Positions 1,765 through 60,032 of a DNA stretch of 64,000 nt are shown piece after piece (position 1 is the first letter of the stretch; each line of letters opens with the position of its first letter). The stretch lies in the NCBI GenBank assembly GCA_963575745.1, contig CAUYUJ010017922.1, positions 51,001-115,000 of the forward strand, given 5' to 3'. The DNA is from Prorocentrum cordatum. Its lineage: Eukaryota; Sar; Dinophyceae; Prorocentrales; Prorocentraceae. Made by a program: the position numbers and the translations under genes. The notes below the pieces were generated by a model. The model did not search any database. It saw only the letters and a program-made list of their open reading frames with translations, and had not been told where the DNA came from.

Positions 1765-1786
1765 TCCGTAGCCATTTTGGCTCAAT
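1765..1786 (+). other. Spliced-leader relic upstream of LAGLIDADG-like gene
   Basis: Positions 1765-1785 match the dinoflagellate spliced leader (core CCGTAGCCATTTTGGCTCAA preceded by T, an allowed first base). Only the last base, normally G, is changed to T at 1786. The SL is added to mRNAs by trans-splicing and is not normally present in front of protein genes. A genomic copy 21 nt before a start codon therefore indicates that the gene passed through a spliced mRNA and was reinserted. A 21-nt match by chance in 64 kb is extremely unlikely. Confidence 0.93.
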
Positions 1787-1807
1787 CATTTGTTTCGGTC
1801 CAAAACG

Positions 1808-2713
1808 ATGCTGACCCGAGCGTTGACGCAGCACACCAGATCAACGAGATATGTGGCGTCACACCCACATTGGCGAGGTGGCTTTTTTGATGGGGACGGT
1901 TGCATGACCGTTACAGGGACTTGTAGAAAATCGAGGCCAGTAGCCTCGATTGGTCTCTCTCTTACTGCCGAGGGCCTCTTGGTCACGAGCCATTTCTATG
2001 CATTGTATGGTGGCACGAGATGTACTTCGTTTTCAACTGCGCAGCGCAACCCGAAACATCGGCCAGTCTGCCGGTGGTCCGTAACGGGACCCGCAGTGTT
2101 CTCGGCCCTTGATGACTTGGACCGCAGCCTGATTATTAAGAAGCCACAGTCACGCCTGCTGCTTGCGCAAAAGCATCTTTTTCTTGGTATACAAAGCCGC
2201 GGTGTTCCTCTCAGTGAGGAGGTGGTTCAGGAGCGCAGCTCATTGCAGTTGAGCTTGAGACAAGTCCGGGCGCAATCTCAAGTGACATCAAGTGACGAGT
2301 ACATCGCACAATTGATGAACGGTAGCCCAAGTGATGAAGAGCAGTCGGCTTATGCAGCAGGTTTCTGCGATGCTGACGCATATTTCGGGTGTGTCCTGGC
2401 AAGTGGTAAGTTCAGGTACACAGTCCAAATAGTTCAAAAGAATCGTGCGTTTCTCCGGGCGTTCAAACATATAATTCTTCGTGGCAGGGGATCAAATGTG
2501 TTCACTCGGCGTGATGGCACGAGTTGTTTATCCATCAGCATCGAAAGCGACATTCAATCTTTCTGCGCTCGAATACGAACTTTTTCGATAGTGAAAGCGA
2601 AGCAACTTGATGTGATAATGTCCGAGCCACCAAGCGCGAGAGCTAGAGAAATTTTACGCGGGATGCATGGGGGGCAGGGCAAGAAAATGCACGAGTCGTG
2701 CGGTCAAGAATAG
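1808..2713 (+). CDS. Two-motif LAGLIDADG homing-endonuclease-like protein
   Basis: A single-exon ORF of 301 codons. I chose ATG 1808, the first ATG after the SL relic; an in-frame TTG at 1790 is less likely. Two LAGLIDADG-type motifs are visible: WRGGFFDGDG at residues 22-31 and YAAGFCDADA at 182-191. The ~150-residue spacing is typical of monomeric double-motif enzymes. The acidic residue near the end of each motif, which binds metal in this family, is kept in both (GDG, DAD). The final Gly of motif 2 is Ala. A KPQSRLLLAQKHLFL segment at 112-126 resembles the Lys/Leu-rich helix that often follows the first half. Family members cut long DNA sites, or act as intron maturases. Here the gene is not inside a recognisable intron or organelle context. 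It has no stop or frameshift. Base composition is lower in GC than the flanks. No target-site duplication or poly(A) was found. Confidence 0.8.
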   Translation: MLTRALTQHTRSTRYVASHPHWRGGFFDGDGCMTVTGTCRKSRPVASIGLSLTAEGLLVTSHFYALYGGTRCTSFSTAQRNPKHRPVCRWSVTGPAVFSALDDLDRSLIIKKPQSRLLLAQKHLFLGIQSRGVPLSEEVVQERSSLQLSLRQVRAQSQVTSSDEYIAQLMNGSPSDEEQSAYAAGFCDADAYFGCVLASGKFRYTVQIVQKNRAFLRAFKHIILRGRGSNVFTRRDGTSCLSISIESDIQSFCARIRTFSIVKAKQLDVIMSEPPSARAREILRGMHGGQGKKMHESCGQE

Positions 2714-10043: not shown

Positions 10044-11892
10044 ACAGTGAATGGTGGCAATTGGCGCCTTCAGGTCTTGAAGGTCTGAGTTGTGGAGCTA
10101 CGTTGGCACCCCTCCCTTCGGCCGCCTTCGTTGGCCGAGGGACCGTTGGGAGAGCCTCGGCCCCCTCCAGCGCCAATGACAGCTTCATGGATTAGTGTAC
10201 TGATGGGAGTGGGACCCCGGCAGCCTCTATGATGGTAGTTGCCGAGGGTGGCGCCTATGATGGTCACCACCAGAGGGGCTGAGGCCTATGATGGTCCTCG
10301 CCAGAGGAGGGGAGGGAGGGAAGGCCGATGACCGGGATCGTCTGGCCGTCCGTGATGCGTCCTGGTCCTGAGGCGGGAATTCCTGAAAGGAGGGGGCTAA
10401 ACAAAAAATAGCATACACAGCTTCGACACCGAACTGAGCAAGCCCTGCGCACTCGGTATCCCACGGGGGGGGGATGACGAGTGCGCACGCTCACGCTTTG
10501 GTGCCAGTTTGTTGCGCCCATTGGGGGCGGGCGAAACGAGCCCCCCCAGGGGCAAGCCAAGGGCCCTGGGGACAGCCGCGCCCCGCCGAGAGCAGGCCCG
10601 AGGAGGGGAAGGCATCCCCCGAGTCAAAAACCAGAACCCCGCGACCGAGCGCCCTGAGGTGAGGACAGATCCGGTGGCCAGCAAATCCTTCAGCAGGCTG
10701 CAGCGGAGGGCGGCATATGTCCGCCCCCGGCTGGGCGCAACAAAGTGGAGCCAACCCGAAGAACTCCCCCAGCGAGAGGTCCGGTTAGGCCACCTTCGTC
10801 GGACAGCCCTGCTCGCAGATTGTCGCGAGGCGGCCTCGAGGCACGGATAGGCCGGTACATCTAAAGTAGTGGACCCCAGACAGACGATTCGGTGATTTAT
10901 TTTCCGCCGACAGTGTTCCCCCAGGCCGGCGAAACCGAGGATATGCCAGTACAGCCAAACCAAAAAAATCCAAAGATTCACACCTGACAGAATGGACAGA
11001 GCCGCATTTCTATCCGAGGAGAGGCTCCTCATCTAAAGGTGCATTTGGGCTTTCACAAAAGCCTGTGGTTCATACTAGCTGGCCGTTCAACTCCCTAAAG
11101 CAATGCAATGGGAGTCCTGACGTGCCAGTATCAGCAGTTTCTCGAGGGGTCAAAAACGCCGCCCTGGGAAAGCAGGGAGGGGGGATTGGACACTCGGTTT
11201 GGCAAGCCCGTCCTCGAGGGAGGGGGGAATCTCAAGAGATTCTGCCTTATGCTTTCAACAACGTGCCTTCCGCGTTTTTGCAAGACCCCCTGATGAACCC
11301 AGCAGGGTGCCCGAACAATTGTCCTGGCAGGCGAGCTGAAGATTGACGCTGGCTTGTCGGAGCAAGCCCACCCCAGCCACCCCCACCATCCCCGTGAATG
11401 GGCGAACAGAGACGAAAAAGGAGGCCAGGCGGAGAGGAAGAAGAAAGAAGGGGGAGGGGAATGGCGGAGAGGAAGAAGAGGGAAGGGGGAGGGGAAGGGA
11501 GCGAAAAAGAGGGGGGGAAGGACGGGCAAGTTGGGTTGGGGACGGTAGGTGTTGATGTGCCCCAGCCTGCTGTTTATCGTCCTTGAGGTGCTCAGGGAAG
11601 GGGTTGGGAGCGGGAACGACCACATGAGCGACACCACGGCGGCACATATGACGCCGCGGCGGCACGGATCGAACCATCACGTGGGTAGGAGTTGGGGAGA
11701 GGGAGCGACCGCATGAGTGACACCACGCCGGCACATGTGCCGCCGTTTCGGCACGGGTCGACCCGTCACCGAATTTGGCATGTTGGAAAAATGGGGGGTG
11801 GCCAATGAACCATAATGCGGAGGTGAATTGATGTTGACAGGCACGACCAGCCAGCAGGGGAATAAATCCCGCTCACGGCCCCGAGGAGGACA
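10044..11892. repeat. Array unit 1 (1849 bp)
   Basis: Complete unit. It serves here as reference for the others. The minus-strand 211-codon frame is 10397-11032 and the GA-rich block is at about 11400-11525. Confidence 0.9.
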
Positions 11893-13570
11893 ACAGTGAA
11901 TGGTGGCAATTGGCGCCTTCAGGTCTTGAAGGTCTGAGTTGTGGAGCTACGTTGGCACCCCTCCCTTCGGCCGCCTTCGTTGGCCGAGGGACCGTTGGGA
12001 GAGCCTCGGCCCCCTCCAGCGCCAATGACAGCTTCATGGATTAGTGTACTGATGGGAGTGGGACCCCGGCAGCCTCTATGATGGTAGTTGCCGAGGGTGG
12101 CGCCTATGATGGTCACCACCAGAGGGGCTGAGGCCTATGATGGTCCTCGCCAGAGGAGGGGAGGGAGGGAAGGCCGATGACCGGGATCGTCTGGCCGTCC
12201 GTGATGCGTCCTGGTCCTGAGGCGGGAATTCCTGAAAGGAGGGGGCTAAACAAAAACTAGCATACACAGCTTCGACACCGAACTGAGCAAGCCCTGCGCA
12301 CTCGGTATCCCACGGGGGGGGGATGACGAGTGCGCACGCTCACGCTTTGGTGCCAGTTTGTTGCGCCCATTGGGGGCGGGCGAAACGAGCCCCCCCAGGG
12401 GCAAGCCAAGGGCCCTGGGGACAGCCGCGCCCCGCCGAGAGCAGGCCCGAGGAGGGGAAGGCATCCCCCGAGTCAAAAACCAGAACCCCGCGACCGAGCG
12501 CCCTGAGGTGAGGACAGATCCGGTGGCCAGCAAATCCTTCAGCAGGCTGCAGCGGAGGGCGGCATATGTCCGCCCCCGGCTGGGCGCAACAAAGTGGAGC
12601 CAACCCGAAGAACTCCCCCAGCGAGAGGTCCGGTTAGGCCACCTTCGTCGGACAGCCCTGCTCGCAGATTGTCGCGAGGCGGCCTCGAGGCACGGATAGG
12701 CCGGTACATCCAAAGTAGTGGACCCCAGACAGACGATTCGGTGATTTATTTTCCGCCGACAGTGTTCCCCCAGGCCGGCGAAACCGAGGATATGCCAGTA
12801 CAGCCAAACCAAAAAAATCCAAAGATTCACACCTGACAGAATGGACAGAGCCGCATTTCTATCCGAGGAGAGGCTCCTCATCTAAAGGTGCATTTGGGCT
12901 TTCACAAAAGCCTGTGGTTCATACTAGCTGGCCGTTCAACTCCCTAAAGCAATGCAATGGGAGTCCTGACGTGCCAGTATCAGCAGTTTCTCGAGGGGTC
13001 AAAAACGCCGCCCTGGGAAAGCAGGGAGGGGGGATTGGACACTCGGTTTGGCAAGCCCGTCCTCGGGGGAGGGGGGAATCTCAAGAGATTCTGCCTTATG
13101 CTTTCAACAACGTGCCTTCCGCGTTTTTGCAAGACCCCCTGATGAACCCAGCAGGGTGCCCGAACAATTGTCCTGGCAGGCGAGCTGAAGATTGACGCTG
13201 GCTTGTCGGAGCAAGCCCACCCCAGCCACCCCCACCATCCCCGTGAATGGGTGAACAGAGACGAAAAAGGAGGCCAGGCGGAGAGGAAGAAGAAAGAAGG
13301 GGGAGGGGAATGGCGGAGAGGAAGAAGAGGGAAGGGGGAGGGGAAGGGAGCGAAAAAGAGGGGGGGAAGGACGGGCAAGTTGGGTTGGGGACGGTAGGTG
13401 TTGATGTGCCCCAGCCTGCTGTTTATCGTCCTTGAGGTGCTCAGGGAAGGGGGTGGGAGCGGGAACGACCACATGAGCGACACCACGGCGGCACATATGA
13501 CGACGGATCGAACCATCACGTGAGGAGTTGGGGAGAGGGAGCCCGCATGAGTGACACCACGCCGGCACAT
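11893..13570. repeat. Array unit 2, truncated at its end
   Basis: Matches unit 1 up to about 13440. It then loses short blocks (near 13500-13550) and breaks at 13570, where it jumps to an internal point of the next unit. Confidence 0.85.
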
Positions 13571-14718
13571 GGGCCGGGCTAAACAAAAAATAGCCATACA
13601 CAGCTTCGACACCAGAACTGAGCAAGCCCTGCGCACTCGGTATCCCACGGGGGGGGATGACCGAGTGCGCACGCTCCTACGCTTTGGTGCCAGTTTGTTG
13701 CGCCCATTGGGGGCGGGCGAAACGAGCCCCCCCAGGGGCAAGCCAAGGGCCCTGGGGACAGCCGCGCCCCGCCGAGAGCAGGCCCGAGGAGGGGAAGGCA
13801 TCCCCCGAGTCAAAAACCAGAACCCCGCGACCGAGCGCCCTGAGGTGAGGACAGATCCGGTGGCCAGCAAATCCTTCAGCAGGCTGCAGCGGAGGGCGGC
13901 ATATGTCCGCCCCCGGCTGGGCGCAACAAAGTGGAGCCAACCCGAAGAACTCCCCCAGCGAGAGGTCCGGTTAGGCCACCTTCGTCGGATGCTTTGTCGC
14001 GAGGCGGCCTCGAGGCACGGATAGGCCGGTGCCTTCCCGCGACAGTGTTTATGCCAGTACAGCCAAACCCCAAAGATTCACACCTGACAGAATGGCATCT
14101 AAAGGTGCATTTGGGCTTTCACAAAAGATACCAATGGGAGTCCTGACGTGCCAGTATCAGCAGTTTCTCGAGGGGTCAAAAACGCCGCCCTGAAGCATTG
14201 GACAGGCCCACCCCTCCCCGTGAATGGGCGAACAGAGACGAAAAAGGAGGCCAGGCGGAGAGGAAGAAGAAAGAAGGGGGAGGGGAATGGCGGAGAGGAA
14301 GAAGAGGGAAGGGGGAGGGGAAGGGAGCGAAAAAGAGGGGGGGAAGGACGGGCAAGTTGGGTTGGGGACGGTAGGTGTTGATGTGCCCCAGCCTGCTGTT
14401 TATCGTCCTTGAGGTGCTCAGGGAAGGGGTTGGGAGCGGGAACGACCACATGAGCGACACCACGGCGGCACATATGACGCCGCGGCGGCACGGATCGAAC
14501 CATCACGTGGGTAGGAGTTGGGGAGAGGGAGCGACCGCATGAGTGACACCACGCCGGCACATGTGCCGCAGTTTCGGCACGGGTCGACCCGTCACCGAAT
14601 TTGGCATGTTGGAAAAATGGGGGGTGGCCAATGAACCATAATGCGGAGGTGATTTGACGTTGACAGGCACGACCAGCCAGCAGGGGAATAAATCCCGCTC
14701 ACGGCCCCGAGGAGGACA
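13571..14718. repeat. Array unit 3, partial with many small deletions
   Basis: Begins at the position equivalent to about 10393 of unit 1. Blocks are missing near 13990, 14030-14050, 14095, 14128 and 14190-14218, plus single-base changes. It resumes the normal unit from about 14220. Confidence 0.85.
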
Positions 14719-16826
14719 ACAGTGAATGGTGGCAATTGGCGCCTTCAGGTCTTGAAGGTCTGAGTTGTGGGCTACGTGGCACCCCCTTCGGCCGCTTCGT
14801 TGGCCGAGGGACCGTTGGGAGAGCCCTCGGCCCCCCCAGCGCCAATGACAGCTCCATGGATTAGTGTACTGATGGGAGTTGGGACCCCGGCAGCCTCTAT
14901 GATGGTAGTTGCCGAGGGTGGCGCCTATGATGGTCACCACCAGAGGGGCTGAGGCCTATGATGGTCCTCGCCAGAGGAGAGGGGAGGGAGGGAAGGCCGA
15001 TGACCGGGATCGTCTGGCCGTCCGTGTGCGCGTCCTGGTCCTGAGGCGGGAATTCCTGAAAGGAGGGGGGCTAAACAAAAAATAGCAATACACAGCTTCG
15101 ACACCGAACTGAGCAAGCCCTGCGCACTCGGTATCCCACGGGGGGGGGATGACGAGTGCGCACGCTCACGCTTTGGTGCCAGTTTGTTGCGCCCATTGGG
15201 GGCGGGCGAAACGAGCCCCCCCAGGGGCAAGCCAAGGGCCCTGGGGACAGCCGCGCCCCGCCGAGAGCAGGCCCGAGGAGGGGAAGGCATCCCCCGAGTC
15301 AAAAACCAGAACCCCGCGACCGAGCGCCCTGAGGTGAGGACAGATCCGGTGGCCAGCAAATCCTTCAGCAGGCTGCAGCGGAGGGCGGCATATGTCCGCC
15401 CCCGGCTGGGCGCAACAAAGTGGAGCCAACCCGAAGAACTTCCCCAGCGAGAGGTCCGTTAGGCCACCTTCGTTCGGTCGGACAGCCCTGCTCGCAGATT
15501 GTCCGAGGCGGCCTCGAGGACGGGGGAGGCCGGTACATGCCAAAGTGGAGTGGACCCCACAGACAGACGATTGATTGTATTTTTTTCGCGCCGACAGTGT
15601 TCCCCCAGGCCGGCGAAACCGAGGATATGGCTGCAGCGGAGGGCGGCATATGTCCGCCCCCGGCTGGGCGCAACAAAGTGGAGCCAACCCGAAGAACTTC
15701 CCCAGCGAGAGGTCCGGTTAGGCCACCTTCGTCGGACAGCCCTGCTCGCAGATTGTCGCGAGGCGGCCTCGAGGCACGGATAGGCCGGTACATCCAAAGT
15801 AGTGGACCCCAGACAGACGATTCGGTGATTTATTTTCCGCCGACAGTGTTCCCCCAGGCCGGCGAAACCGAGGATATGCCAGTACAGCCAAACCAAAAAA
15901 ATCCAAAGATTTACACCTGACAGAATGGACAGAGACCCATTTCTATCCGAGGAGAGGCTCCTCATCTAAAGGTGCATTTGGGCTTTCACAAAAGCCTGTG
16001 GTTCATACTAGCTGGCCGTTCAACTCCCTAAAGCAATGCAATGGGAGTCCTGACGTGCCAGTACCAGCAGTTTCTGGAGGGGTCAAAAAAAAACGCCCTG
16101 GGAAAGCAGGGAGGGGGGATTGGACACTCGGTTTGGCAAGCCCGTCCTCGGGGGAGGGGGGAATCTCAAGAGATTCTGCCTTATGCTTTCAACAACGTGC
16201 CTTCCGCGTTTTTGCAAGACCCCCTGATGAACCCAGCAGGGTGCCCGAACAATTGTCCTGGCAGGCGAGCTGAAGATTGAGGCTGGCTTGTCGGAGCAAG
16301 CCCACCCCAGCCACCCCCACCATCCCCGTGAATGGGCGAACAGAGACGAAAAAGGAGGCCAGGCGGAGAGGAAGAAGAAAGAAGGGGGAGGGGAATGGCG
16401 GAGAGGAAGAAGAGGGAAGGGGGAGGGGAAGGGAGCGAAAAAGAGGGGGGGAAGGACGGGCAAGTTGGGTTGGGGACGGTAGGTGTTGATGTGCCCCAGC
16501 CTGCTGTTTATCGTCCTTGAGGTGCTCAGGGAAGGGGGTGGGAGCGGGAACGACCACATGAGCGACACCACGGCGGCACATATGACGCCGCGGCGGCACG
16601 GATCGAACCATCACGTGGGTAGGAGTTGGGGAGAGGGAGCGACCGCATGAGTGACACCACGCCGGCACATGTGCCGCCGTTTCGGCACGGGTCGACCCGT
16701 CACCGAATTTGGCATGTTGGAAAAATGGGGGGTGGCCAATGAACCATAATGCGGAGGTGATTTGATGTTGACAGGCACGACCAGCCAGCAGGGGAATAAA
16801 TCCCGCTCACGGCCCCGAGGAGGACA
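14719..16826. repeat. Array unit 4 with 258-bp internal duplication
   Basis: The segment starting CTGCAGCGGAGGG is present at 15373 and again at 15631. The first copy has many small indels, the second is near-identical to other units. Small indels are also frequent at 14770-15100. Confidence 0.85.
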
Positions 16827-18675
16827 ACAGTGAATGGTGGCAATTGGCGCCTTCAGGTCTTGAAGGTCTGAGTTGTGGAGCTACGTTGGCACCCCTCCCT
16901 TCGGCCGCCTTCGTTGGCCGAGGGACCGTTGGGAGAGCCTCGGCCCCCTCCAGCGCCAATGACAGCTCCATGGATTAGTGTACTGATGGGAGTGGGACCC
17001 CGGCAGCCTCTATGATGGTAGTTGCCGAGGGTGGCGCCTATGATGGTCACCACCAGAGGGGCTGAGGCCTATGATGGTCCTCGCCAGAGGAGGGGAGGGA
17101 GGGAAGGCCGATGACCGGGATCGTCTGGCCGTCCGCGATGCGTCCTGGTCCTGAGGCGGGAATTCCTGAAAGGAGGGGGCTAAACAAAAAACAGCATACA
17201 CAGCTTCGACACCGAACTGAGCAAGCCCTGCGCACTCGGTATCCCACGGGGGGGGGATGACGAGTGCGCACGCTCACGCTTTGGTGCCAGTTTGTTGCGC
17301 CCATTGGGGGCGGGCGAAACGAGCCCCCCCAGGGGCAAGCCAAGGGCCCTGGGGACAGCCGCGCCCCGCCGAGAGCAGGCCCGAGGAGGGGAAGGCATCC
17401 CCCGAGTCAAAAACCAGAACCCCGCGACCGAGCGCCCTGAGGTGAGGACAGATCCGGTGGCCAGCAAATCCTTCAGCAGGCTGCAGCGGAGGGCGGCATA
17501 TGTCCGCCCCCGGCTGGGCGCAACAAAGTGGAGCCAACCCGAAGAACTCCCCCAGCGAGAGGTCCGGTTAGGCCACCTTCGTCGGACAGCCCTGCTCGCA
17601 GATTGTCGCGAGGCGGCCTCGAGGCACGGATAGGCCGGTACATCCAAAGTAGTGGACCCCAGACAGACGATTCGGTGATTTATTTTCCGCCGACAGTGTT
17701 CCCCCAGGCCGGCGAAACCGAGGATATGCCAGTACAGCCAAACCAAAAAAATCCAAAGATTTACACCTGACAGAATGGACAGAGACCCATTTCTATCCGA
17801 GGAGAGGCTCCTCATCTAAAGGTGCATTTGGGCTTTCACAAAAGCCTGTGGTTCATACTAGCTGGCCGTTCAACTCCCTAAAGCAATGCAATGGGAGTCC
17901 TGACGTGCCAGTATCAGCAGTTTCTCGAGGGGTCAAAAACGCCGCCCTGGGAAAGCAGGGAGGGGGGATTGGACACTCGGTTTGGCAAGCCCGTCCTCGG
18001 GGGAGGGGGGAATCTCAAGAGATTCTGCCTTATGCTTTCAACAACGTGCCTTCCGCGTTTTTGCAAGACCCCCTGATGAACCCAGCAGGGTGCCCGAACA
18101 ATTGTCCTGGCAGGCGAGCTGAAGATTGACGCTGGCTTGTCGGAGCAAGCCCACCCCAGCCACCCCCACCATCCCCGTGAATGGGTGAACAGAGACGAAA
18201 AAGGAGGCCAGGCGGAGAGGAAGAAGAAAGAAGGGGGAGGGGAATGGCGGAGAGGAAGAAGAGGGAAGGGGGAGGGGAAGGGAGCGAAAAAGAGGGGGGG
18301 AAGGACGGGCAAGTTGGGTTGGGGACGGTAGGTGTTGATGTGCCCCAGCCTGCTGTTTATCGTCCTTGAGGTGCTCAGGGAAGGGGTTGGGAGCGGGAAC
18401 GACCACATGAGCGACACCACGGCGGCACATATGACGCCGCGGCGGCACGGATCGAACCATCACGTGGGTAGGAGTTGGGGAGAGGGAGCGACCGCATGAG
18501 TGACACCACGCCGGCACATGTGCCGCAGTTTCGGCACGGGTCGACCCGTCACCGAATTTGGCATGTTGGAAAAATGGGGGGTGGCCAATGAACCATAATG
18601 CGGAGGTGATTTGACGTTGACAGGCACGACCAGCCAGCAGGGGAATAAATCCCGCTCACGGCCCCGAGGAGGACA
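16827..18675. repeat. Array unit 5 (1849 bp)
   Basis: Complete unit, near-identical to unit 1. The minus 211-codon frame is at 17180-17815. Confidence 0.9.
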
Positions 18676-20523
18676 ACAGTGAATGGTGGCAATTGGCGCC
18701 TTAAGGTCTTGAAGGTCTGAGTTGTGGAGCTACGTTGGCACCCCTCCCTTCGGCCGCCTTCGTTGGCCGAGGGACCGTTGGGAGAGCCTCGGCCCCCTCC
18801 AGCGCCAATGACAGCTTCATGGAGTAGTGTACTGATGGGAGTGGGACCCCGGCAGCCTCTATGATGGTAGTTGCCGAGGGTGGCGCCTATGATGGTCACC
18901 ACCAGAGGGGCTGAGGCCTATGATGGTCCTCGCCAGAGGAGGGGAGGGAGGGAAGGCCGATGACCGGGATCGTCTGGCCGTCCGTATGCGTCCTGGTCCT
19001 GAGGCGGGAATTCCTGAAAGGAGGGGGCTAAACAAAAAATAGCATACACAGCTTCGACACCGAACTGAGCAAGCCCTGCGCACTCGGTATCCCACGGGGG
19101 GGGGATGACGAGTGCGCACGCTCACGCTTTGGTGCCAGTTTGTTGCGCCCATTGGGGGCGGGCGAAACGAGCCCCCCCAGGGGCAAGCCAAGGGCCCTGG
19201 GGACAGCCGCGCCCCGCCGAGAGCAGGCCCGAGGAGGGGAAGGCATCCCCCGAGTCAAAAACCAGAACCCCGCGACCGAGCGCCCTGAGGTGAGGACAGA
19301 TCCGGTGGCCAGCAAATCCTTCAGCAGGCTGCAGCGGAGGGCGGCATATGTCCGCCCCCGGCTGGGCGCAACAAAGTGGAGCCAACCCGAAGAACTCCCC
19401 CAGCGAGAGGTCCGGTTAGGCCACCTTCGTCGGACAGCCCTGCTCGCAGATTGTCGCGAGGCGGCCTCGAGGCACGGATAGGCCGGTACATCTAAAGTAG
19501 TGGACCCCAGACAGACGATTCGGTGATTTATTTTCCGCCGACAGTGTTCCCCCAGGCCGGCGAAACCGAGGATATGCCAGTACAGCCAAACCAAAAAAAT
19601 CCAAAGATTTACACCTGACAGAATGGACAGAGCCGCATTTCTATCCGAGGAGAGGCTCCTCATCTAAAGGTGCATTTGGGCTTTCACAAAAGCCTGTGGT
19701 TCATACTAGCTGGCCGTTCAACTCCCTAAAGCAATGCAATGGGAGTCCTGACGTGCCAGTATCAGCAGTTTCTCGAGGGGTCAAAAACGCCGCCCTGGGA
19801 AAGCAGGGAGGGGGGATTGGACACTCGGTTTGGCAAGCCCGTCCTCGGGGGAGGGGGGAATCTCAAGAGATTCTGCCTTATGCTTTCAACAACGTGCCTT
19901 CCGCGTTTTTGCAAGACCCCCTGATGAACCCAGCAGGGTGCCCGAACAATTGTCCTGGCAGGCGAGCTGAAGATTGACGCTGGCTTGTCGGAGCAAGCCC
20001 ACCCCAGCCACCCCCACCACCCCCGTGAATGGGTGAACAGAGACGAAAAAGGAGGCCAGGCGGAGAGGAAGAAGAAAGAAGGGGGAGGGGAATGGCGGAG
20101 AGGAAGAAGAGGGAAGGGGGAGGGGAAGGGAGCGAAAAAGAAGGGGGGAAGGACGGGCAAGTTGGGTTGGGGACGGTAGGTGTTGATGTGCCCCAGCCTG
20201 CTGTTTATCGTCCTTGAGGTGCTCAGGGAAGGGGTTGGGAGCGGGAACGACCACATGAGCGACACCACGGCGGCACATATGACGCCGCGGCGGCACGGAT
20301 CGAACCATCACGTGGGTAGGAGTTGGGGAGAGGGAGCGACCGCATGAGTGACACCACGCCGGCACATGTGCCGCAGTTTCGGCACGGGTCGACCCGTCAC
20401 CGAATTTGGCATGTTGGAAAAATGGGGGGTGGCCAATGAACCATAATGCGGAGGTGATTTGATGTTGACAGGCACGACCAGCCAGCAGGGGAATAAATCC
20501 CGCTCACGGCCCCGAGGAGGACA
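18676..20523. repeat. Array unit 6 (1848 bp)
   Basis: Complete unit. The minus 211-codon frame is at 19028-19663. One base shorter than units 1 and 5. Confidence 0.9.
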
Positions 20524-23889: not shown

Positions 23890-24284
23890 AGCTCCCCAGA
23901 TGCGCATCCACTAGCACGGACCTGTCCACCGTGAGCTTGTAGGCGCAATAGCTTTCGAATATAAACGAGCTTGAGTATTGACGGTCTGGGAGCGAATCTA
24001 ATTGTGAATGAGTTGGAGTGCGAATGAGTCTCAGTACTATGAGCGCGTCTGTGCGCATGAGCCTGGGGCCTCCTGAAACCTCCTAGGGTTTCCTGGGGCC
24101 TCCTGGAGCCTCTTGGAGCCTCCTGGGGCCTCTTGGGGCTTCCTGCGGCCTCCTGAAGCCTCCTGTTGCCTCGCGTGGCCTCCTGGGGCCTCCTGGAGCC
24201 TCCTGGAGCCCCCTGGGGCCTCCTGGGGAGGATTCGTGCCCCAGGAAAGGCCCAATATATAGGAACAGGCGTAAAACATGTCGG
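23890..24284. repeat. Dispersed complex repeat with CCTCCTGGGG minisatellite (copy 1)
   Basis: Order: GCATCCACTAGCACGGACCTGTCC, GAATATAAACG, GAATGAGTTGGAGTG, then (CCTCCTGGGGCCT)n at 24060-24225, then CCCAATATATAGGAACA..GTAAAACAT. The same order occurs at about 26290-26700 and 28175-28620. This copy is interrupted at 24295 by a retroposed mRNA. Confidence 0.8.
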
Positions 24285-24295
24285 ATTGGAGCCAC
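24285..24295. repeat. Target-site duplication, left copy
   Basis: ATTGGAGCCAC here matches ACTGGAGCCAC at 25481-25491 at 10 of 11 positions. The two flank the retroposed mRNA exactly at its poly(A) and SL ends. Confidence 0.8.
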
Positions 24296-24513
24296 TTTTT
24301 TTTTAAATGAGCATGAGCAGCCCGCGCAACGCGAGCCGATCCCGTTCGCCCCCTCCGCCGCTCCGCAGCGGCCGCGTCTTACTCCTGCGCGGCGTGCACG
24401 ACCAGGGCGTGCGCACGAGGGCGCCTCGCGGCGCCGCGCTGCCCCAGGAGCCCGATGGCGGAGGGGCCCCCTGGCGCCAGGCCCGCCCCTACCCGCGGGC
24501 CAGCCCGTAGGGC

Positions 24514-25377
24514 CTAGGCGGGGCGCCAGCGGACGGCCTCCAGCATGCGCCGAAGGTCGTCGCTCGCCTCGGGGCGCCAATCGGCCGCCCTCCGCAGGAC
24601 GCCGTCCGCCGAGGCGAACGCGTCCTCGAGGGCAGCCGCCGCCCCCGCCGCCGCGTCCGAGGCAGCAGCACCGCTGCCAGGCTCCGCCGCCGCCACCGTC
24701 GCGTCCGCCTGCCCCTTCGCCCCCGGGTCCCTCGCGAGTGCCAGCACCGTGCCCGCGGCCGCGCCGGCCGCGCCAGCGCCCTCCGCGTCCACGACCCACC
24801 GGCCCTCGCGCCCAGGGGCGTGTTCGGGCCTCCGCCTGCGCCTCCGCGGCCAGGCAGGGGCGGCAGCTCCTCCCACTCCAGCGGGATCCGCCGCCGCCGC
24901 ACCCGAGGCGGCCCGACGAACGTCGTCCGCCCACTCGTCATCGAGGTCGTCCATGTCGTCGTCGGCGGTGGCCGCCGCTGCAGCCGCAACAGCAGCTGCA
25001 CCAGCGGCAGCTCCAGCGACCGCCCCAGCGGGCACCACCTCCACGACCATGTTGTTCTCCTCCTGGGCGGCCGCGCGCCGCGCAGCACGGCGCTGGCGGC
25101 GGCGGCGGCGCTTCGCGGCTCGCGCCGCAGGGTCAGCCCCAGCAGCACCAGCTCGGTCAGGAGGATCAGGGCGAGCAGCACCAGCAGCAGCAGCGGGCGG
25201 CGGCGGCACGGCGCCCTCGGCCCCGCTGCCCACCCCGAAAAGGGTGGCCGACACAGCCGACCGCGCCACAGCCGCGACCGTGCGCCGCGGCGCACTCGCA
25301 GAGACGGCCCCGCGGACCGCCGCCTCAACCAGGAGGGCGGCGTCGCGGGCCGACCAAGCCCCTCTAGGCGCCGCCAT
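24514..25377 (-). CDS. Intronless Ala-rich protein of a retroposed gene, function unknown
   Basis: The ORF is 287 codons and starts at the first ATG after the two SL relics (25377). No stop or frameshift breaks it. Features: an Ala/Arg-rich N-terminal third; a strongly basic run at about residues 90-101 (KRRRRRQRRAAR); the word ENNMVVEVVP at 107-116; an Ala-rich linker; an acidic stretch DDDMDDLDDEWADD at 139-152; a second basic run at 178-183; and a C-terminal helix-like DDLRRMLEAVRW. No domain is recognised. The basic run could be a nuclear localisation or RNA-binding patch. Upstream, the frame also reads through the SL relics as two WLK repeats, so translation might begin earlier. Whether it is expressed is unknown. 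Strong GC3 bias matches an originally functional dinoflagellate gene. Confidence 0.6.
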   Translation of the reverse strand: MAAPRGAWSARDAALLVEAAVRGAVSASAPRRTVAAVARSAVSATLFGVGSGAEGAVPPPPAAAAGAARPDPPDRAGAAGADPAARAAKRRRRRQRRAARRAAAQEENNMVVEVVPAGAVAGAAAGAAAVAAAAAATADDDMDDLDDEWADDVRRAASGAAAADPAGVGGAAAPAWPRRRRRRPEHAPGREGRWVVDAEGAGAAGAAAGTVLALARDPGAKGQADATVAAAEPGSGAAASDAAAGAAAALEDAFASADGVLRRAADWRPEASDDLRRMLEAVRWRPA

Positions 25378-25428
25378 CCGCGCCACGGGCGAAGGGCCGC
25401 GCCGATAGGCTTTCGCCAGAGGCGGACC

Positions 25429-25453
25429 CTTGAGCCAGGACACGGGGCGACGG
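25429..25453 (-). other. Inner, older spliced-leader relic
   Basis: The minus strand reads CCGT-c-GCC, a short insertion, then TCCTGGCTCAAG. This keeps both ends of the SL with substitutions and about four extra bases. It lies directly downstream of the better-preserved relic, as expected if the first-inserted leader is now older. Confidence 0.6.
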
Positions 25454-25464
25454 CCGTGCGAACG

Positions 25465-25480
25465 CTTGAGCCAAAATGGG
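25465..25480 (-). other. Outer spliced-leader relic, 5' truncated
   Basis: CCATTTTGGCTCAAG on the minus strand equals the last 15 nt of the SL. The SL's 5' part is missing at the exact junction with the target-site duplication, consistent with incomplete reverse transcription. Confidence 0.85.
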
Positions 25481-25491
25481 ACTGGAGCCAC
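25481..25491. repeat. Target-site duplication, right copy
   Basis: ACTGGAGCCAC, the partner of 24285-24295. Beyond it the interrupted repeat resumes with GGGCAATCCATAGGAACAC, as in the uninterrupted copy at about 26615. Confidence 0.8.
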
Positions 25492-26275: not shown

Positions 26276-27700
26276 TGGAGCTCCCCATATGTGCATCTAC
26301 TCGCATGGACCTGTCCGCCGTGAATGTCTAGGCGCAAGAGCTTTCGAATATTAACGGGCGTCAGTTGTGACGGTCTGGACATCAATCTAACTGCGAATGA
26401 ATTGGAGTGTGAATGAGCCTCAGTAGTACGAGCGCGTCTCTGTGCATGAGCCTGGGGCCTCCTGGGGCCTCCTGAAACCTACTGGGGCTTCCTGGGGTCT
26501 CCAGGAGCCTCTTGGGACCTCCTGGGACCTCCTAGGAAGGTTTCGTGCCCCAGGAGAGGCGCAATCTATAGCAACAGACGTACATAAAACATTGCGGATT
26601 AGAGCCACAGGAGAAGGGCAATCTATAGGAACACGCGTAAAACACCAAGGACTCGTGCCCCAGGAGAGGCCCAAAACATAGGAACATGAGTAAAACATTT
26701 AGGATTGTGTACACAGGAGAAGGACCATCTATAGAAACATACGTAGAACATCAAAGAATCGTGCTCCAGGTGAGGCCCAATCGATAGGAGCATACGTAAA
26801 ACACATGGGATTGGAGCCACTCCTGTTGCCTTCTGAGGCCTCCTGCTCCTGGGGCCTCTCGGGGCCTCCTGTTGCCTTCCGAGGCCTCCTGGCGCTTCCT
26901 GTTGCCTCCTGGGGCCTCCTGTGGTTTCCTGAGGCCTTCTGGAGCTTCCTGGGGCCTCCTGGAGCCTCTTGGGACATCCTGTGGCCTCTTGAGTTTTTCT
27001 GTGGCCTCCTGATGCCTCCTGGGACCTCATGTGGTCTCCTGGGGCCTCCTGGAGCCTGTTGGAGCCTCCTGTGGCATCCTGAGAAGAATCTGCGCCCACG
27101 AGCCTGGCCACCAAAACAAGCAAACCGATCGAGACATCCTCAAAATCTGGCCCACCTGGGGGGTGAAAATGAGCGCCTCGCTCGAGACATCCTCCAAATC
27201 TGCTCCGAAAGCGAAGGATGTTGAGCCCAGAAACAAGCAAACCGCCTGAGACATCCCCACAAAATGGCCGCGAACGAGCCCGTGCAACCACCCCTGGCGG
27301 CTCCCCTTAGGGCCACGAGCCTGGCCACGAAAACAAGCAAACCGATCGAGACATCCTCAAAATCTGGCCCACCTGGGGGGGAAAATGAGCGCCTCGCTCG
27401 AGACATCCTCCAAATCTGCTCCGAAAGCGAAGGATGTTGAGCCCAGAAATGACCAAACCGCCTGAGACATCCCCACAAAATTCCGCGAACGGGACCCCGT
27501 GAAATACCCCCCCGCCGCCCCCCTTAGAGTGCTGAGACGAGCGAATCGCCTGAGACATCCTCCAAATCTGCTCCGAAAACGAAACATGTTGGATCAGAAA
27601 ATGGCCAAACCGCCTGAGACATCCCCACAAAATTCCGCGAACGGGACCCCGTGAAATACCCCCCCGCCGCCCCCCTTAGATTGCTGAGACGAGCGAATCG
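26276..27700. repeat. Segmental duplication copy A (~1.4 kb, partner about 1886 bp downstream)
   Basis: Shares order and high identity with 28175-29400: GCATGGACCTGTCCGCCGTG, a CCTCCTGGGG minisatellite, four ATAGGAAC/GTAAAAC units, a second CCTCCTG minisatellite (26820-27075), then several ~165-bp units with GAGACATCCTC. It includes at 26598-26660 the uninterrupted version of the retrogene insertion site. Confidence 0.85.
27080..27700. repeat. Tandem ~110-170-bp units, GAGACATCCTC(C/A)AAATCTG
   Basis: Units contain CGAGACATCC, CTCCGAAAGCGAAGGATGTTG and CGCGAACG words. At least five units lie here. Others are at 25915-26145, 29035-29390 and 30465-30960. Frames are open on the minus strand but shift between units. 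Confidence 0.8.
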
Positions 27701-27870
27701 CCTGAGTCTGAGTGATGACTGAGTCTGAGTGATGAGAGAGCATGAGTGAGTCTGAGTGATGAGTGAATCTGAGTGGTGAGTCTGAGTGATGAGTGGTGTG
27801 TCTGAGTGAGGACTGAGTCTGAGTGATGAGTGAGTCTTGATGAGTGAGTCTGAGTGATGAGTGAGTGGGG
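27700..27870. repeat. GAGTCTGAGTGAT minisatellite
   Basis: Units of 12-14 bp, TGAGTCTGAGTGA. Related arrays lie at 29395-29495 and 29935-30470. Confidence 0.85.
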
Positions 27871-28172
27871 AATCAAAAACCCCATCTTTGGATATGGGGA
27901 ATCAAGAACCCCATCTTAGGATATGGGGAATAACTTACGTGTGTGTCTGAGTGATGGGTGTGGTGTTCTGTCCTGTTCTGTGTCCTTCCGGCGCGGTCCG
28001 CCAATAACAAGAACCCCATCTTTGGATATGGGGAATCAAAAACCCCATCTTTGGATATGGGGAATCAAGAACCCCATCTTAGGATATGGGGAATAACTTA
28101 CGTGTGTGTCTGAGTGATGGGTGTGGTGTTCTGTCCTGTTCTGTGTCCTTCCGGCGCGGTCCGCCAATAACA
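27866..28172. repeat. Hairpin repeat CCCCATCTTTGGATATGGGG and 'GTGTTCTGTCC' block
   Basis: CCCCAT...ATGGGG hairpins with an 8-nt loop recur at about 27882, 27912, 28014, 28043 and 28073. A GTGTGGTGTTCTGTCCTG, TGTCCTTCCGGCGCGGTCC block occurs after each cluster (27957, 28120, 29495). Variants lie at 29550 and 31285-31370. Confidence 0.8.
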
Positions 28173-28557
28173 AGAAGTGCATCTATTCGCATGGACCTGT
28201 CCGCCGTGAATGTCTAGGCGCAAGAGCTTTCGAATATACACGGGCTTCAGTTGTGACGGTCAGGACATAAATCTAACTGCGAATGAATTGGAGTGTGAAT
28301 GAGCCTCAGTAGTACAAGCGCGTCTTTGTGCATGAGCCTCGGGCCTCCTGGGGCCTCCTGAAACCTACTGGGGCTTCCTGGGGTCTCCAGGAGCCTCTTG
28401 GGGCCTCCTGGGACCTCCTAGGGAGGTTTCGTGCCCCAGGAGAGGCGCAATATATAGCAACAGACGTACATAAACCATTGCGGATTCGTGCCACAGGAGA
28501 AGGGCAATCTATAGGAACACGCGTCAACACACAAAGGACTCGTGCCCCAGGAGAGGC

Positions 28558-36045: not shown

Positions 36046-36707
36046 ATGATGGACGCCAAGGCGCTCCTGGATTCCCTCATGGGCCCATCGCGAGACAAGG
36101 ACCTCAAGGAGCAGCGGCGCAGCGATGGATGGAAGGAGGAGAACGTCTGCAAGCGGTATATCATTGGTTTCTGCCCCAACAATCAAAACGATTGCTGGTT
36201 CAACGCCAGGCGGAGAGATCTCGGATTGTGCACCAAGGTGCATTCCGAGGCATTGCGGAAGCAGTTCCAGGACCACCCGGATAGGGAGAAGCATCTCCCA
36301 GCCTATGAAAAAGAATTCCTCGCCTACCTGGAGTCTGTGATCTCAGAGGCGGATGCGAGCATCGCGCGGGAGAAGAAGAAGGCTGCGCCCGCGGGCGTCG
36401 AAACCCGCATCCCTGTTCACCTGAAGGGCACAGCGAAGGAGTTGAAGCAGCAGGCAGAGGATTGCCTCAAGCTCGCAGAGGAGGCCGCCGAAAAGGGGGA
36501 CGTCGAGGGGAGCAAGCGGCTCACTGCTCAGTCGGGCAAGCTGAAGGAGGACTTGGAGGACCTCAAGGCGAGGTACACCTACGAGTCGACGGGGGAGAAC
36601 GTATGCGAGGTGTGCGGGGTCCGCTGCCTGCCCGGGGAGCAGGCCGACTACGAGGCACACCTCGAGGGGAAGCTGCACCTGGGCTATAAGAAGATGCGCG
36701 ACAAGGC
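36046..36707 (+). CDS. LUC7: LUC7 exon 1 (both zinc fingers)
   Basis: The frame starts ATGATG, giving ALLDSLMGPSRD after the start. This matches the ALLDQLMG opening recalled for eukaryotic LUC7 proteins, so no upstream coding exon is needed. VCKRYIIGFCP and DLGLCTKVHSEAL are the hallmark first-finger segments. A Lys/Glu-rich helix follows at about 80-180, then ENVCEVCGVRCLPGEQ and HLEGKLHLGYKKMRDK. After 36707 the open frame continues to 36942, but it becomes Pro/Gly/Arg-rich and unlike the family. That fits read-through into an intron, and I place the exon end at a GC donor there. Confidence 0.93.
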
Positions 36708-39332
36708 GCGCTGCCCCCAAGCCCCCCCCCCAAGCCCTCCACGAGCAGGAGGAGGAGGCAGTGTGCGCGGGCACGCGGGTCGTTCCGGAATGGGCCTCGC
36801 CCGCGGCGCGTCGCAGCCCTCGGCGCGAGGCCCGCGGAAGCGAGAGGAGGGCGGCAGATCCGCGGGCGGAGGGCCGGGGAGGCAAGCGCGAGACGCCCGT
36901 TCCTCGGGGCTCGTCGAGGTTTCCAGGGTCCGCCACGTGTAGCGTCAAGGTTGTGAGGGCGCCAGGTATACACCTGCACCGACCCATGGGCCCCGCCTCG
37001 TCCGGGCCAGGATCGGTGCAGGTGTGCGGTTGGCGCTGGAGGCGGCCGTGCGCAGACACCCACCCATCCGACGCTGCATGTCTTGTTCGCATCAAGCCCG
37101 CGGGGCCTCGACCAGTGTTCCCCGTGGTCGGATCGTCAGCCTGGGCTGCTTCTGCGGTCGGCGTTCTCCTTCTCTTCCTCCTCCTCCTCCTTCTCCTCCT
37201 CCTCCTTCTCCTCCCCCTCCTCCTCCTCCTCCTCCTCCTCCTCCTCCTCCATTCCTTTCCCTTATATGTACATGTATAAATGTGTATATATATATATATA
37301 TATGTATTTTAACTTCTCCTTGTCGCACCCCGAGGCCAGTTTTTTTGGGCGGGCCGGGCGTTTCGCCTGAGACTTCTTCGTCATGTGTGACCCTGAAGCT
37401 TTAAAATTAACAACAGCTTCACAGATGGAGGGCGGGTCGTTTTCAAAATGTGGTTATCCCTTTGGCGCCGCGCACATTCGTTCTAAAAACTTGCAAGAGT
37501 TGCACGCACTGAGGGCGGGTCGTTTTCAAAATGTTGTTATCGCTTTGGCGTCGCGCACATCCGCTTCAAGAACTTCGCGGATTGAGGGCGACCCGTTTTC
37601 AAAATGTGATTCTCGCCTTAGCGCCGCGCACACTCGTTTTTAATTTGCAAGAGCTTCACGGATTGAGGGCGGTTTCTTTTCAAAATGTGGCTCTCGCTTT
37701 AGGGCCGCGCACATTGGTTTTTTAATGTGCAAGAGTTTCACGGGTTCCCATGAGCAACGTACCAGACATGGTGATTTGGAAGGATTTGGGATTATGAGTG
37801 CGGCTGCCAGCAAGTCGCCCAAGGCTGCCGTCAGGCTGTCAGGAACAGCCGTCCAGGTCGGCACTGGTTCGCGAAGCGCGCCTGCAAGGTCCAAAGTGTC
37901 CCACCACGGGAGCCCAGAGAGTTTGCCCTTCTCAGCCGCCACCGTGTGGCGGGGCTCCATGTCGCCCGCCGGCGTCCTCCTGCGCGTTCGCCGCCAGGCC
38001 AGCGGCCGTCGCCCCAGCCGCACCGCCCACCATGCAGGCTAGGACCTGCGCCCGCGCCTCCTCGGGCAGCGCCGCAAGGCCTTCCACTGTGCCTGCGGGG
38101 ATACCCCCTGGGATGCAGGCAGGGTGCCTGAAATAGCGATCCAGGTTGGCACGGCTGACCAGCCGCACCCTTCTGTGGCCGAACCCTTCGCAGCAGACGT
38201 AGCAGAGGCCCACGCGCCGGCGCACCGGCTGCAGGGTCGCCGTCCACGCGCGCACCTTGGCTCGTGCGGCGGCTCTGGGAACTGGGGCCGGCGCGGGAGG
38301 GGCACCACCCGCACCAGCGGCATTCCCCGGGGCAGCAGCGGCGCCGGATGCGCCGCCAAGGTGGGCTGCTCCAGGGGGCACGGCCGCCGCCGCCGCCTCG
38401 TCCCTCCCCATCATGTCGTCGTCGTCCCCCTCCTCGTCGTGGCCCACGACCATGTTCACGTCGCTCTCCATCGCGTGAGGGGCGGGAGGAAGGTGCGGAA
38501 TGGAAGGGGGAAGAATGGGTGAGGAGGGAGGCGGCCGGGCAACGGCTGCGCGCGATTTGAGCCTCCTCCTCCTCCGCCTCTTCCTCCTCCTCCTGCTCCT
38601 CCTCCTCCTCCTCTTCCTCCTCCTCCTCCTCCTCCTCCTCCTCCTCCTCCTCCCTCCTCCTCCTCTCCTCCTCCTCCTCCTCCTCCTCCTCCTCCTCCTC
38701 CTCCTCCTCTTCCTCCTCCTCATGCTCCTGCTCCTGCTCCTGCTCCTTCTCCTCGTCGTCCTCCTCCTCCCCCTCCTCCTCCTCCTCCTCTTCCTCCTCC
38801 TCCTCCTCGCCCTCGTCGTCGACCTCGTGGTCGTCCTCAGCGATCGGCGGCGGCGGTCCTCTGCAGTCCTCGATCCTGCAACCTCTGCCCCGAGTCCTCT
38901 ACCGCCAGGCGCAGGAGTTGCGGGAGAAGCGCCGGGCGAAGGAGACGGGCTCCAGGGAGGGCCCCAGGACCGGCTGGCTGAAAGTCGTCGTCTGCGCCGC
39001 TCGAGGATGCGATCGGGCGGGCCCAAGGGAAGATAAGTCGCTCCAGAGCGGTCCCCAACGCGTTTTCATAGCGCTCCCCAGAGCGCTCTAGAACGGCCGC
39101 GGCGCCCGATACATCCTCCAGAACCGCCGGATTTCAGAGATCTCTGAGTTGTCCCGGTCCGATCCTGTCCCGGTCCAGACTTCGTCTCATATGGGGATTT
39201 GAGCTTTGAACGTTCTTGGCCCCTTGGGGGCGTCTGGGACCTTTGAATCTCTGGGGGCTGTCAGAGGCATCGCAACGACCGGGGACTCCAGGACCAGCCC
39301 GCGAGACGACGACGACGACAACGACGACGCTT

Positions 39333-57329: not shown

Positions 57330-57869
57330 TCCTCCTACCTCTCGCTCCTCGGTGTCCACGGTCCAGCAGGAGCGCCATCCATACAGCCCCACCAGGAGCC
57401 CAACCTTGAGGCTTCTTAGTCTACCGAAAAACTCCTCCCCCCCTTGCTTAAGACTTTGCGAAATCCACTGCCGCCATTGCTTGATCCTCTGGGCCCGCGA
57501 GGTTAGGTCTTCAGCATCAACAATGACCCGAAAGGCCGCCGGCGCACCCTGCAGCTCCTCGTGGGAGACGTCGGCGCGCAGACGGAGACCTCCGTTGAAC
57601 ACAATCCATCCAGGGATACTTTCAAAGGCCTCGATGGGCGCCGTGAGCTTCCAAACCGGGTCTTGAACCCCAGAAGACATCCGGGGCTGCTCTTCCCCAT
57701 GAAGGTACGACAGCTCATCCAGCCAGACCTGGCACCCCCTGAGCGCCCAGGATTCAACGCTGCACTGCGGAAAGGGGCCTGAATCATGATGCTCCAAAAC
57801 CGGCTTTCCGACCACCTGATATTTAGTTTTTTTTCCAACAGCGTTTGGATTGATCAGAGGACTTGATGC
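57330..57869 (-). pseudogene. LINE remnant, segment after the endonuclease
   Basis: The minus frame runs from just past the in-frame TAG at 57870-57872 to the CTC tract. It contains VGKPVLEHHDSGPFPQCSVE, SWALRGCQVWLDELSYLHGE and WRQWISQSLKQGGEEFFGRL. Residue mix is that of a real protein, with Trp-rich helices. In LINE polyproteins the stretch between endonuclease and reverse transcriptase is variable like this. The element stops in the microsatellite before any RT motif. A short GRLRSLKVGLLVGLYGWRSC is the last unique segment. Confidence 0.55.
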
Positions 57870-58570: not shown

Positions 58571-58585
58571 ACTGAGACGTAGCTT

Positions 58586-60009: not shown

Positions 60010-60032
60010 AGGCTTGAGCCAAAATGGCTACG
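60001..60032 (-). other. Tandem spliced-leader relics at the 5' end of the LINE-like element
   Basis: CGTAGCCATTTTGGCTCAAG at 60032-60013 (-) is identical to SL nt 3-22. Directly after it, GCC-TTTGGCTCAA (60013-60001) is a shortened, altered second copy. The pattern implies at least two rounds of trans-splicing and reinsertion. Confidence 0.92.

What the first reader, a model, noticed from the sequence alone, without database searches (positions are those of the whole stretch)
24285..25491. Complete retroposed trans-spliced mRNA: two SL relics, ORF, poly(A), TSD and a paralogous empty site in the same window
Seen: 5'-truncated SL at 25465-25480 (-), a second diverged SL at 25429-25453, an intact 287-codon intronless ORF, nine A at 24296-24304 (-), and an 11-bp flanking duplication (10/11). 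A repeat copy at about 26590-26660 shows the same flanks joined without the insert (ATTAGAGCCAC then AGGAGAAGGGCAATC); a second lies at about 28485. Known: SL relics mark mRNA recycling in dinoflagellates. Finding TSD, tail and an empty site together is unusually complete and shows that insertion used a LINE-like mechanism. The nested relics imply at least two cycles.
Basis: partly seen in the sequence, partly recalled or inferred. Interest (0 to 1): 0.9.

Follow-up and report, generated by a model that had tools for sequence, protein, structure and literature searches.

The report
Spliced-leader passenger of site-specific LINE
The insert is one copy of a jumping-gene family in a marine alga whose members start with the cell's own mRNA leader, land at the same DNA site again and again, and appear to borrow the copying machine of a larger jumping gene found at that site, which bears on the open question of what pastes messenger RNAs back into dinoflagellate genomes.

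Summary
In detail: a 1,183-bp insert (24296-25478, minus strand) with a spliced-leader (SL) relic, nine A, a 13-bp target duplication (12/13) and empty copies of the site. The genome changes the interpretation: it is not a one-off mRNA retrocopy. Counting the window, 22 close copies (over 93% identical) were found; 19 adjoin the same target, GTGGCTCTAATCC or a close variant, in a dispersed repeat. Inserts average 97.6% identity, their 5' flanks 78.1%, so most insertions are independent. The site holds 54 SL-headed 5' junctions and 85 A-tail 3' junctions (controls 0) against 2,017 empty sites. Pairing gives 16 elements of 1.1-2.3 kb and 20 of 6.0-6.7 kb. The one large element read in full encodes an endonuclease and reverse transcriptase and ends in a hairpin tail that the window copy shares. 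Best reading: an SL-headed, protein-coding, non-autonomous passenger of an SL-headed, site-specific LINE. Not shown: transcription, activity, protein function. Organism inferred as Prorocentrum cordatum.

The parts
24296..25478 (-). Inserted element, 1,183 bp (5' end at 25478, A tail at 24296)
25465..25479 (-). 5' spliced-leader relic, SL nt 8-22; its first base overlaps the target duplication
25429..25445 (-). Inner SL-like stretch; TGGCTCAAG exact, rest diverged; could be a local duplication
24514..25377 (-). 287-aa ORF; N-terminal helical hairpin and basic RRRRRQRR helix (confident in the model), DDEWADD stretch, C-terminal helices (low confidence)
24317..24342 (-). 3'-terminal hairpin tail shared with the 6.4-kb LINE L079
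24296..24304 (-). A9 tail
24283..24295 (.). Target duplication copy 1 (sense GTGGCTCCAATCC)
25479..25491 (.). Target duplication copy 2 (sense GTGGCTCCAGTCC)
26590..26613 (-). Empty target site, identical over 24 nt to CTCCTGTGGCTCTAATCCGCAATG, the 24-mer counted as the empty site genome-wide
28476..28499 (-). Second empty target site, 2 mismatches

Best explanation
The insert is a copy of a non-autonomous, protein-coding retroelement. Its RNA is made like a cell mRNA: trans-spliced to the DinoSL and polyadenylated. A LINE with endonuclease and reverse transcriptase (and an RNase H-like region), which is itself SL-headed, nicks one site in a dispersed repeat (5'-GTGGCTCTAATCC/GCAATG-3'). The LINE enzyme recognises a shared 3'-terminal hairpin plus A tail on either RNA and primes cDNA from the nick (target-primed reverse transcription). 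cDNA synthesis runs to the SL or stops within it, and repair leaves the 13-bp duplication. An integrated SL brings two possible acceptor AGs: use of CTCAAG| restores one SL, use of CCGTAG|CC adds a 15-nt unit, so some copies have two or four units. Shown from sequence: recurrent site, duplication, A tail, SL heads, mostly independent insertions, LINE at the same site, shared tail, LINE domains in the one copy read. Inferred: transcription, trans-mobilisation by that LINE, nick position, hairpin recognition, acceptor choice.
For: Recurrent site: of 22 loci, 18 have the 5' junction at the target (14 of them the 3' junction too) and L046 the 3' junction alone; L031 and L049 are elsewhere, L050 is not at the target at its 3' end and its 5' side reads N (the table missed the diverged 3' target of L032). 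Independence: mean identity 97.6% in inserts (91 pairs), 78.1% in 5' flanks (105 pairs), 73.1% in 3' flanks (78 pairs); 5' flank less similar than insert in 80 of 91 pairs, 3' flank in 60 of 66. Genome-wide: 85 A-tail junctions, 54 SL junctions, 2,017 empty sites, 0 in each reversed-pattern control; 37 of 54 SL junctions pair on the same strand, none with the opposite strand. Of 20 of the 85 A-tail junctions read (chosen among those not known as window-family copies), 19 share A-type tails, also carried by short copies such as L036 and L041. L079: ORF2 meets the Pfam cut-off for the EEP endonuclease and is collinear with P0008, which carries RVT_1 and EEP. Tail of the window copy against the LINE tail: score 35, 0 of 2,000 shuffles, 0 of 2,095 interior 45-mers. 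Eight further 5' junctions, seven of them from 6-kb pairs, start with one SL and the same 5' UTR as L079.
Against: No RNA data, no activity test. Only one large element was read in full; for the others 'LINE' rests on length, on 5' ends (7 more read) or on 3' tails. The window copy's tail matches the LINE over about 37 nt only; the rest of its 3' UTR differs. Hairpin covariation is modest: 108 of 108 cells paired, but one pair with changes on both sides, and 31 of 500 shuffles reach the score. Pfam gave no RT hit at 0.01 for L079 itself; RT rests on homology to P0008 and motifs I recognised. 11 of 91 pairs of loci have 5' flanks over 97% identical; in 10 of these the tail or the number of SL units differs, but L037/L044 could be one duplicated insertion. 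The duplication at off-site L031 lies in a repeat of similar units and is weak evidence. In Symbiodiniaceae and Polarella LINEs are described as ancient remnants (PMC8045281, passages), so this activity may be confined to this lineage.
Confidence: 0.87

Rival explanations
1. One-off or repeated retroposition of a host gene's mRNA by a LINE, without any element of its own: a very productive retrogene family.
For: The ORF has relatives deposited as unnamed P. cordatum proteins and one from a Pyramimonas transcriptome; dN/dS about 0.32-0.37 against seven diverged relatives.
Against: Same target in 19 of 22 loci, LINE-like tail at its 3' end, three different 3' tails on one 5' body. No parent gene was recognised, but only 40 of 407 DNA and 136 of 249,965 protein candidates were scored, so this absence is weak.
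Confidence: 0.1
2. Spread by DNA-level amplification of the host repeat (tandem or segmental duplication of a unit that already held the insert).
For: The site lies in a repeat that is amplified in the window; 11 of 91 locus pairs have 5' flanks over 97% identical.
Against: Flanks are more diverged than inserts in 80 of 91 pairs; 5' ends (truncated SL, full SL, two or four units), tails and A-run lengths differ between copies; copies L031 and L049 lie elsewhere.
Confidence: 0.02
3. The retroposition was done by an LTR retroelement (Ty1/copia), as suggested for dinoflagellates in PMC6050394 (section 7 read).
For: Literature suggestion only.
Against: A tail, 13-bp duplication at a recurrent site, ends within the SL, tail sharing with an endonuclease/RT element at the same site.
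Confidence: 0.01

Closest known systems
SINE/LINE pairs that share a 3' tail (recalled: eel UnaL2 LINE and its SINEs)
   Same: Short element without RT, A-rich end, 3' tail and hairpin in common with a partner LINE, target duplication.
   Different: Here the passenger is SL-headed, about 1.2 kb, carries a conserved ORF, and shares one insertion site with the LINE. Whether any part is pol III-derived was not tested.
DinoSL-tagged retrogenes (Slamovits and Keeling 2008, recalled; PMC12014239 passages, PMC6050394 passages and section 7)
   Same: Genomic SL relics, tandem relics after several cycles, intronless copy.
   Different: Those are described as host-gene copies; what I read gives no enzyme, target site or tail. 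Here the family is mobile, site-specific and linked to a LINE.
Target-specific non-LTR elements such as R1/R2 and Utopia (PMC4640811, abstract in search listing only; R1/R2 recalled)
   Same: Insertion at one position of a repeated sequence, many empty sites left.
   Different: Target is a dispersed repeat without known gene, endonuclease is EEP type, and the 5' end is a trans-spliced leader.
SLACS/CZAR/CRE of trypanosomatids (recalled)
   Same: Site-specific LINEs connected with the spliced leader.
   Different: Those insert into SL RNA genes; here the SL is the element's own 5' end and the target is elsewhere.
SL-bearing transposon transcripts of Hydra (PMC12220107, one passage read)
   Same: Transposon RNAs are trans-spliced to SL.
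   Different: The passage concerns transcripts; it does not describe SL copied back as the genomic 5' end.

Membership tests
Non-autonomous passenger of a LINE (SINE-like) | Many copies with target duplications and A tails | tested here: met
Non-autonomous passenger of a LINE (SINE-like) | 3' end in common with an RT-encoding partner | tested here: met
   (about 37 nt in the window copy; longer in type-A copies)
Non-autonomous passenger of a LINE (SINE-like) | No RT of its own | tested here: met
   the 287-aa ORF has no Pfam family at 0.1
SINE in the strict sense | Pol III-transcribed small RNA head | not tested
   No pol III promoter search was run; the head is DinoSL
Processed host retrogene | Intron-bearing parent gene in the genome | tested here: inconclusive
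   none recognised; most candidates not scored, partial matches not examined for introns
Site-specific non-LTR retrotransposon (the partner) | Endonuclease and RT in one element at a constant site | tested here: met
   one copy read in full
SLACS/CRE group | Insertion into SL RNA genes (recalled) | tested here: not met
   target is a dispersed repeat
LINE-mediated insertion (TPRT) | Nicking and priming at the target | not testable with these tools
   needs biochemistry

The most novel reading that the evidence does not exclude
The genomic DinoSL is not a relic but the working 5' end of a whole class of mobile elements. Because the SL ends in AG and holds a second AG, an integrated SL is a portable trans-splice acceptor that rebuilds itself at each cycle, or adds a countable 15-nt unit. 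SL-headed LINEs and protein-coding passengers, which swap 3' tails and so switch partner LINE and target (one repeat site here, TCC/GGA microsatellites elsewhere), would account for much of the roughly 34,000 SL copies in this genome, and the 287-aa passenger protein would be kept by selection for mobility.
Probability: 0.45. Interest if true: 0.9.

Novelty: new variant of a known kind. Interest (0 to 1): 0.82.

Why it matters
Dinoflagellate genomes are thought to be swollen by mRNAs copied back into DNA, but the enzyme is unknown; PMC6050394 (section 7 read) says so and favours an LTR element. Here is a concrete candidate: a LINE with a candidate cut site, a candidate RNA tail and natural passengers, so the mechanism can be tested directly. 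It also warns that SL relics, used to count 'retrogenes', may often mark mobile elements. Empty and filled copies of one site give a built-in before/after comparison, and tandem SL units may count cycles.

Tried and rejected
ORF length as evidence of coding: rejected. DNA duplication of the host repeat: rejected for most pairs on flank divergence. A copy of the LINE L079 inside the window: none found by blastn or tblastn. Target duplications for the other two SL elements of the window: none convincing. Structure of the 287-aa protein: mean pLDDT 56.9, only the N-terminal hairpin and the basic helix are confident, so no fold search was run. Nei-Gojobori among near copies: too few changes to judge. 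Genome counts of the hairpin tail and of SL after GGA repeats: not completed. Literature: nine searches showed in their listings no title or abstract on SL-headed site-specific dinoflagellate LINEs; the library holds open papers only, and PMC5585692 is not held. Papers of which I saw passages found by word: PMC12014239, PMC6050394, PMC7245778, PMC10666404, PMC11453091, PMC12220107, PMC4558846, PMC8045281, PMC7789003; a whole section: PMC6050394 section 7, PMC7245778 section 7. Rows left out: one search used 15 of the 22 loci (L038 without insert comparison; L032 and L044 without 3' flank); one search used 12 distinct type I and type A tails of those, type B left out; one search leaves 17 of 54 5' junctions unpaired and its 4,447-bp pair looks like a mispairing across two copies; one search used 20 of the 100 SL places listed. 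In one search the row L048 re-reads the copy of L040; the copy that fetched L048 is its tandem neighbour, whose 5' end also adjoins the target.

Full report
What is there. The window segment 24296-25478 (minus strand) is a clean insertion of 1,183 bp. It begins with SL nt 8-22 (25465-25479), ends in A9 (24296-24304) and lies between 13-bp repeats that match at 12 of 13 positions. The surrounding repeat has a 53-bp period; the spacing across the insert is 1,249 bp, i.e. 53 plus 1,196, which is the insert plus one 13-bp duplication. The empty site is present at 26590-26613 without mismatch to the 24-nt empty-site pattern used for genome counts, and at 28476-28499 with two mismatches. Three SL matches (18 nt, up to 3 mismatches) were found in the window against 0.04 expected.

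The ORF. At 77% GC several frames stay open by chance, so length is no argument. The frame is supported by homologues (P0001-P0003, N-terminal 48 residues 63-77% identical), by differences at codon positions 1/2/3 of 13/13/38 of 100/102/102 against L056 (three other relatives alike), and by dN/dS of about 0.32-0.37 against seven diverged relatives (dS is near 1, so the ratio is rough). Among near copies the ratio ranges from about 0.5 to 2.3 on 3-13 silent changes and says little. A protein search of the genome gave 140 matches, 13 of them with stops; 136 of 249,965 first-look candidates were scored. The model is poor except for an N-terminal helical hairpin and a basic helix.

It is a family at one site. 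The genome (G000, 4.128 Gb, taken to be P. cordatum from its size, the 4.15 Gbp in the listing of PMC10449503, and the protein hits; inferred) holds the insert again in many places: 57 matches, of which the loci L029-L050, the window included, are close copies (40 of 407 candidates scored). In 18 of these 22 the 5' end adjoins GTGGCTCTAATCC or a close variant, within a few bases; in 14 of them the 3' end does too; in L046 only the 3' end does. L031 lies in another repeat with a 13-bp duplication (weak, the repeat has similar units), L049 elsewhere, and L050 is not at the target at its 3' end while its 5' side reads N. L045 and L047 look like second views of L030 and L041, and the row L048 re-reads L040, leaving about 15 distinct insertions by 5' junction. 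Inserts are 97.6% identical on average (91 pairs), 5' flanks 78.1% (105 pairs), 3' flanks 73.1% (78 pairs). In 11 of 91 pairs the 5' flanks exceed 97% identity; tail or SL number differs in 10 of these, not in L037/L044. L040 holds two copies in tandem at one site.

5' ends. Copies carry one truncated SL (window, L032, L035, L036, L041, L047), one full SL, two units (L031) or four units (L030, L042, L043). The 15-nt unit is what is expected if the AG in CCGTAG|CC is used as acceptor, the form called DinoRL in PMC12014239 (passages). SL itself ends in AG, so use of that AG would restore a single SL. L079 and seven other 6-kb elements, and one unpaired 5' junction with the same 5' UTR, have one SL each. 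This choice of acceptors is inference.

3' ends. Three tails occur on the same 5' body: I (window), A and B. Tails I and A share GGATCGG...CTGC, able to form a 9-bp hairpin with a 3-nt loop; all 108 pair cells are standard, against 31-51% when partners are slid, but only one pair shows changes on both sides and 31 of 500 shuffles reach the covariation score. Tail B has a hairpin of different sequence at the same place (seen, not tested).

The partner. A-tail junctions at the target: 85; SL junctions: 54; empty sites: 2,017; controls 0 (at most 2 mismatches for the first and third, exact for the second). So about 4% of such sites are filled. Pairing gives 37 elements: 16 of 1,148-2,309 bp, 20 of 5,970-6,688 bp, one odd 4,447; 17 5' junctions stay unpaired. 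Of 20 A-tail junctions read (of 85; known window-family copies left out), 19 have A-type tails and one tail B. The 6,403-bp element L079 starts with SL, has an ORF1 with a cysteine-rich start, and an ORF2 with an EEP endonuclease (Pfam 1.4e-5, above the cut-off) collinear with P0008, annotated with RVT_1 and EEP; the alignment also spans a region with RNase H-like motifs (my reading). Pfam found no RT in L079 at 0.01. Its last 37 nt before the A tail align with the window copy (score 35; 0 of 2,000 shuffles, best 24). Other short elements at the site encode the same ORF family (L082) or another ORF (L080, L083); diverged ORF relatives (52-57% identity) lie beside junctions of this site on contigs C6987, C14256, C15903, C16733, C17333 and C20099 (compared by eye).

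How it works, most likely: as given in the best explanation. Shown: structure, site, tail sharing, LINE domains in one copy. Inferred: that this LINE mobilises the passenger, by target-primed reverse transcription.

Wider pattern. SL with at most two mismatches occurs 33,832 times in the genome, 9 in the control. Of 20 exact SL loci read (from the first two contigs, not a random sample), 16 have a nearly pure purine or pyrimidine stretch just upstream, against 112 of 4,871 background blocks, and in several the microsatellite resumes 5-6.5 kb downstream. 2,162 SL copies follow CTCCTCCT with at most two mismatches, 3 in the control. Diverged relatives of the window ORF (L053, L055, L056) are SL-headed in or beside such TCC stretches. 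So the class seems larger than this family.

Novelty. PMC6050394 (section 7 read) states that the type of retroelement behind dinoflagellate retroposition is unknown and favours LTR elements. PMC12014239 (passages) leaves it open. PMC8045281 (passages) describes LINEs of Symbiodiniaceae and Polarella as ancient remnants. The nine literature searches listed under 'tried' showed nothing on SL-headed site-specific LINEs in dinoflagellates in their listings; the library is partial.

Noticed in passing
window 1766-1785 (+) and 1790-2713 (+): Full-length SL copy followed at once by an ORF with a LAGLIDADG endonuclease match (Pfam 3.3e-5, above cut-off): an SL-tagged homing-endonuclease-like gene. 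No convincing target duplication.
   Followed up: partly
window 57600-60032 (-): SL nt 3-22 plus a second TTTGGCTCAA, beside a GGA-rich stretch, followed by a degraded element with zinc-finger-like and endonuclease-like fragments (my reading; no Pfam hit for two of its ORFs).
   Followed up: partly
loci L001-L028: Most exact SL copies sampled abut TCC/GGA microsatellites, and several head stretches of several kb bounded by the same microsatellite.
   Followed up: partly
L028 about 3.9 kb downstream of its SL: A TCC stretch is followed by another SL-like sequence, as if two SL elements sit in tandem in one microsatellite.
   Followed up: no
L034 upstream of its 5' target copy; compare window 27866-28090: An A8 run after AATAACAAGAACCCCATCTTAGGATATGGGG directly precedes the target copy: another element with a different 3' hairpin may use the same site; a similar motif is repeated in the window.
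   Followed up: no
contigs C19177 and C19255 of G000: SL-headed junctions of this site follow one another at about 6.4-6.7 kb spacing (three on C19177, two on C19255), as if LINE copies stand in tandem.
   Followed up: no
window 25478-25479: The SL of the window copy starts at nt 8 or 9; position 8 is also a frequent start of full-length cDNAs in Polarella (PMC7245778 section 7), so RNA modification may stop reverse transcriptase in the cell too.
   Followed up: no
window 36046-36942 (+): ORF with a LUC7 domain (Pfam 4.1e-44).
   Followed up: no
protein P0004: Prorocentrum protein joining the ORF family's modules to an FHA domain, as if the element's ORF had been captured by, or taken from, a host gene.
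   Followed up: no
window 10400-20400: Tandem array of roughly 1.85-kb units with near-identical ORFs.
   Followed up: no
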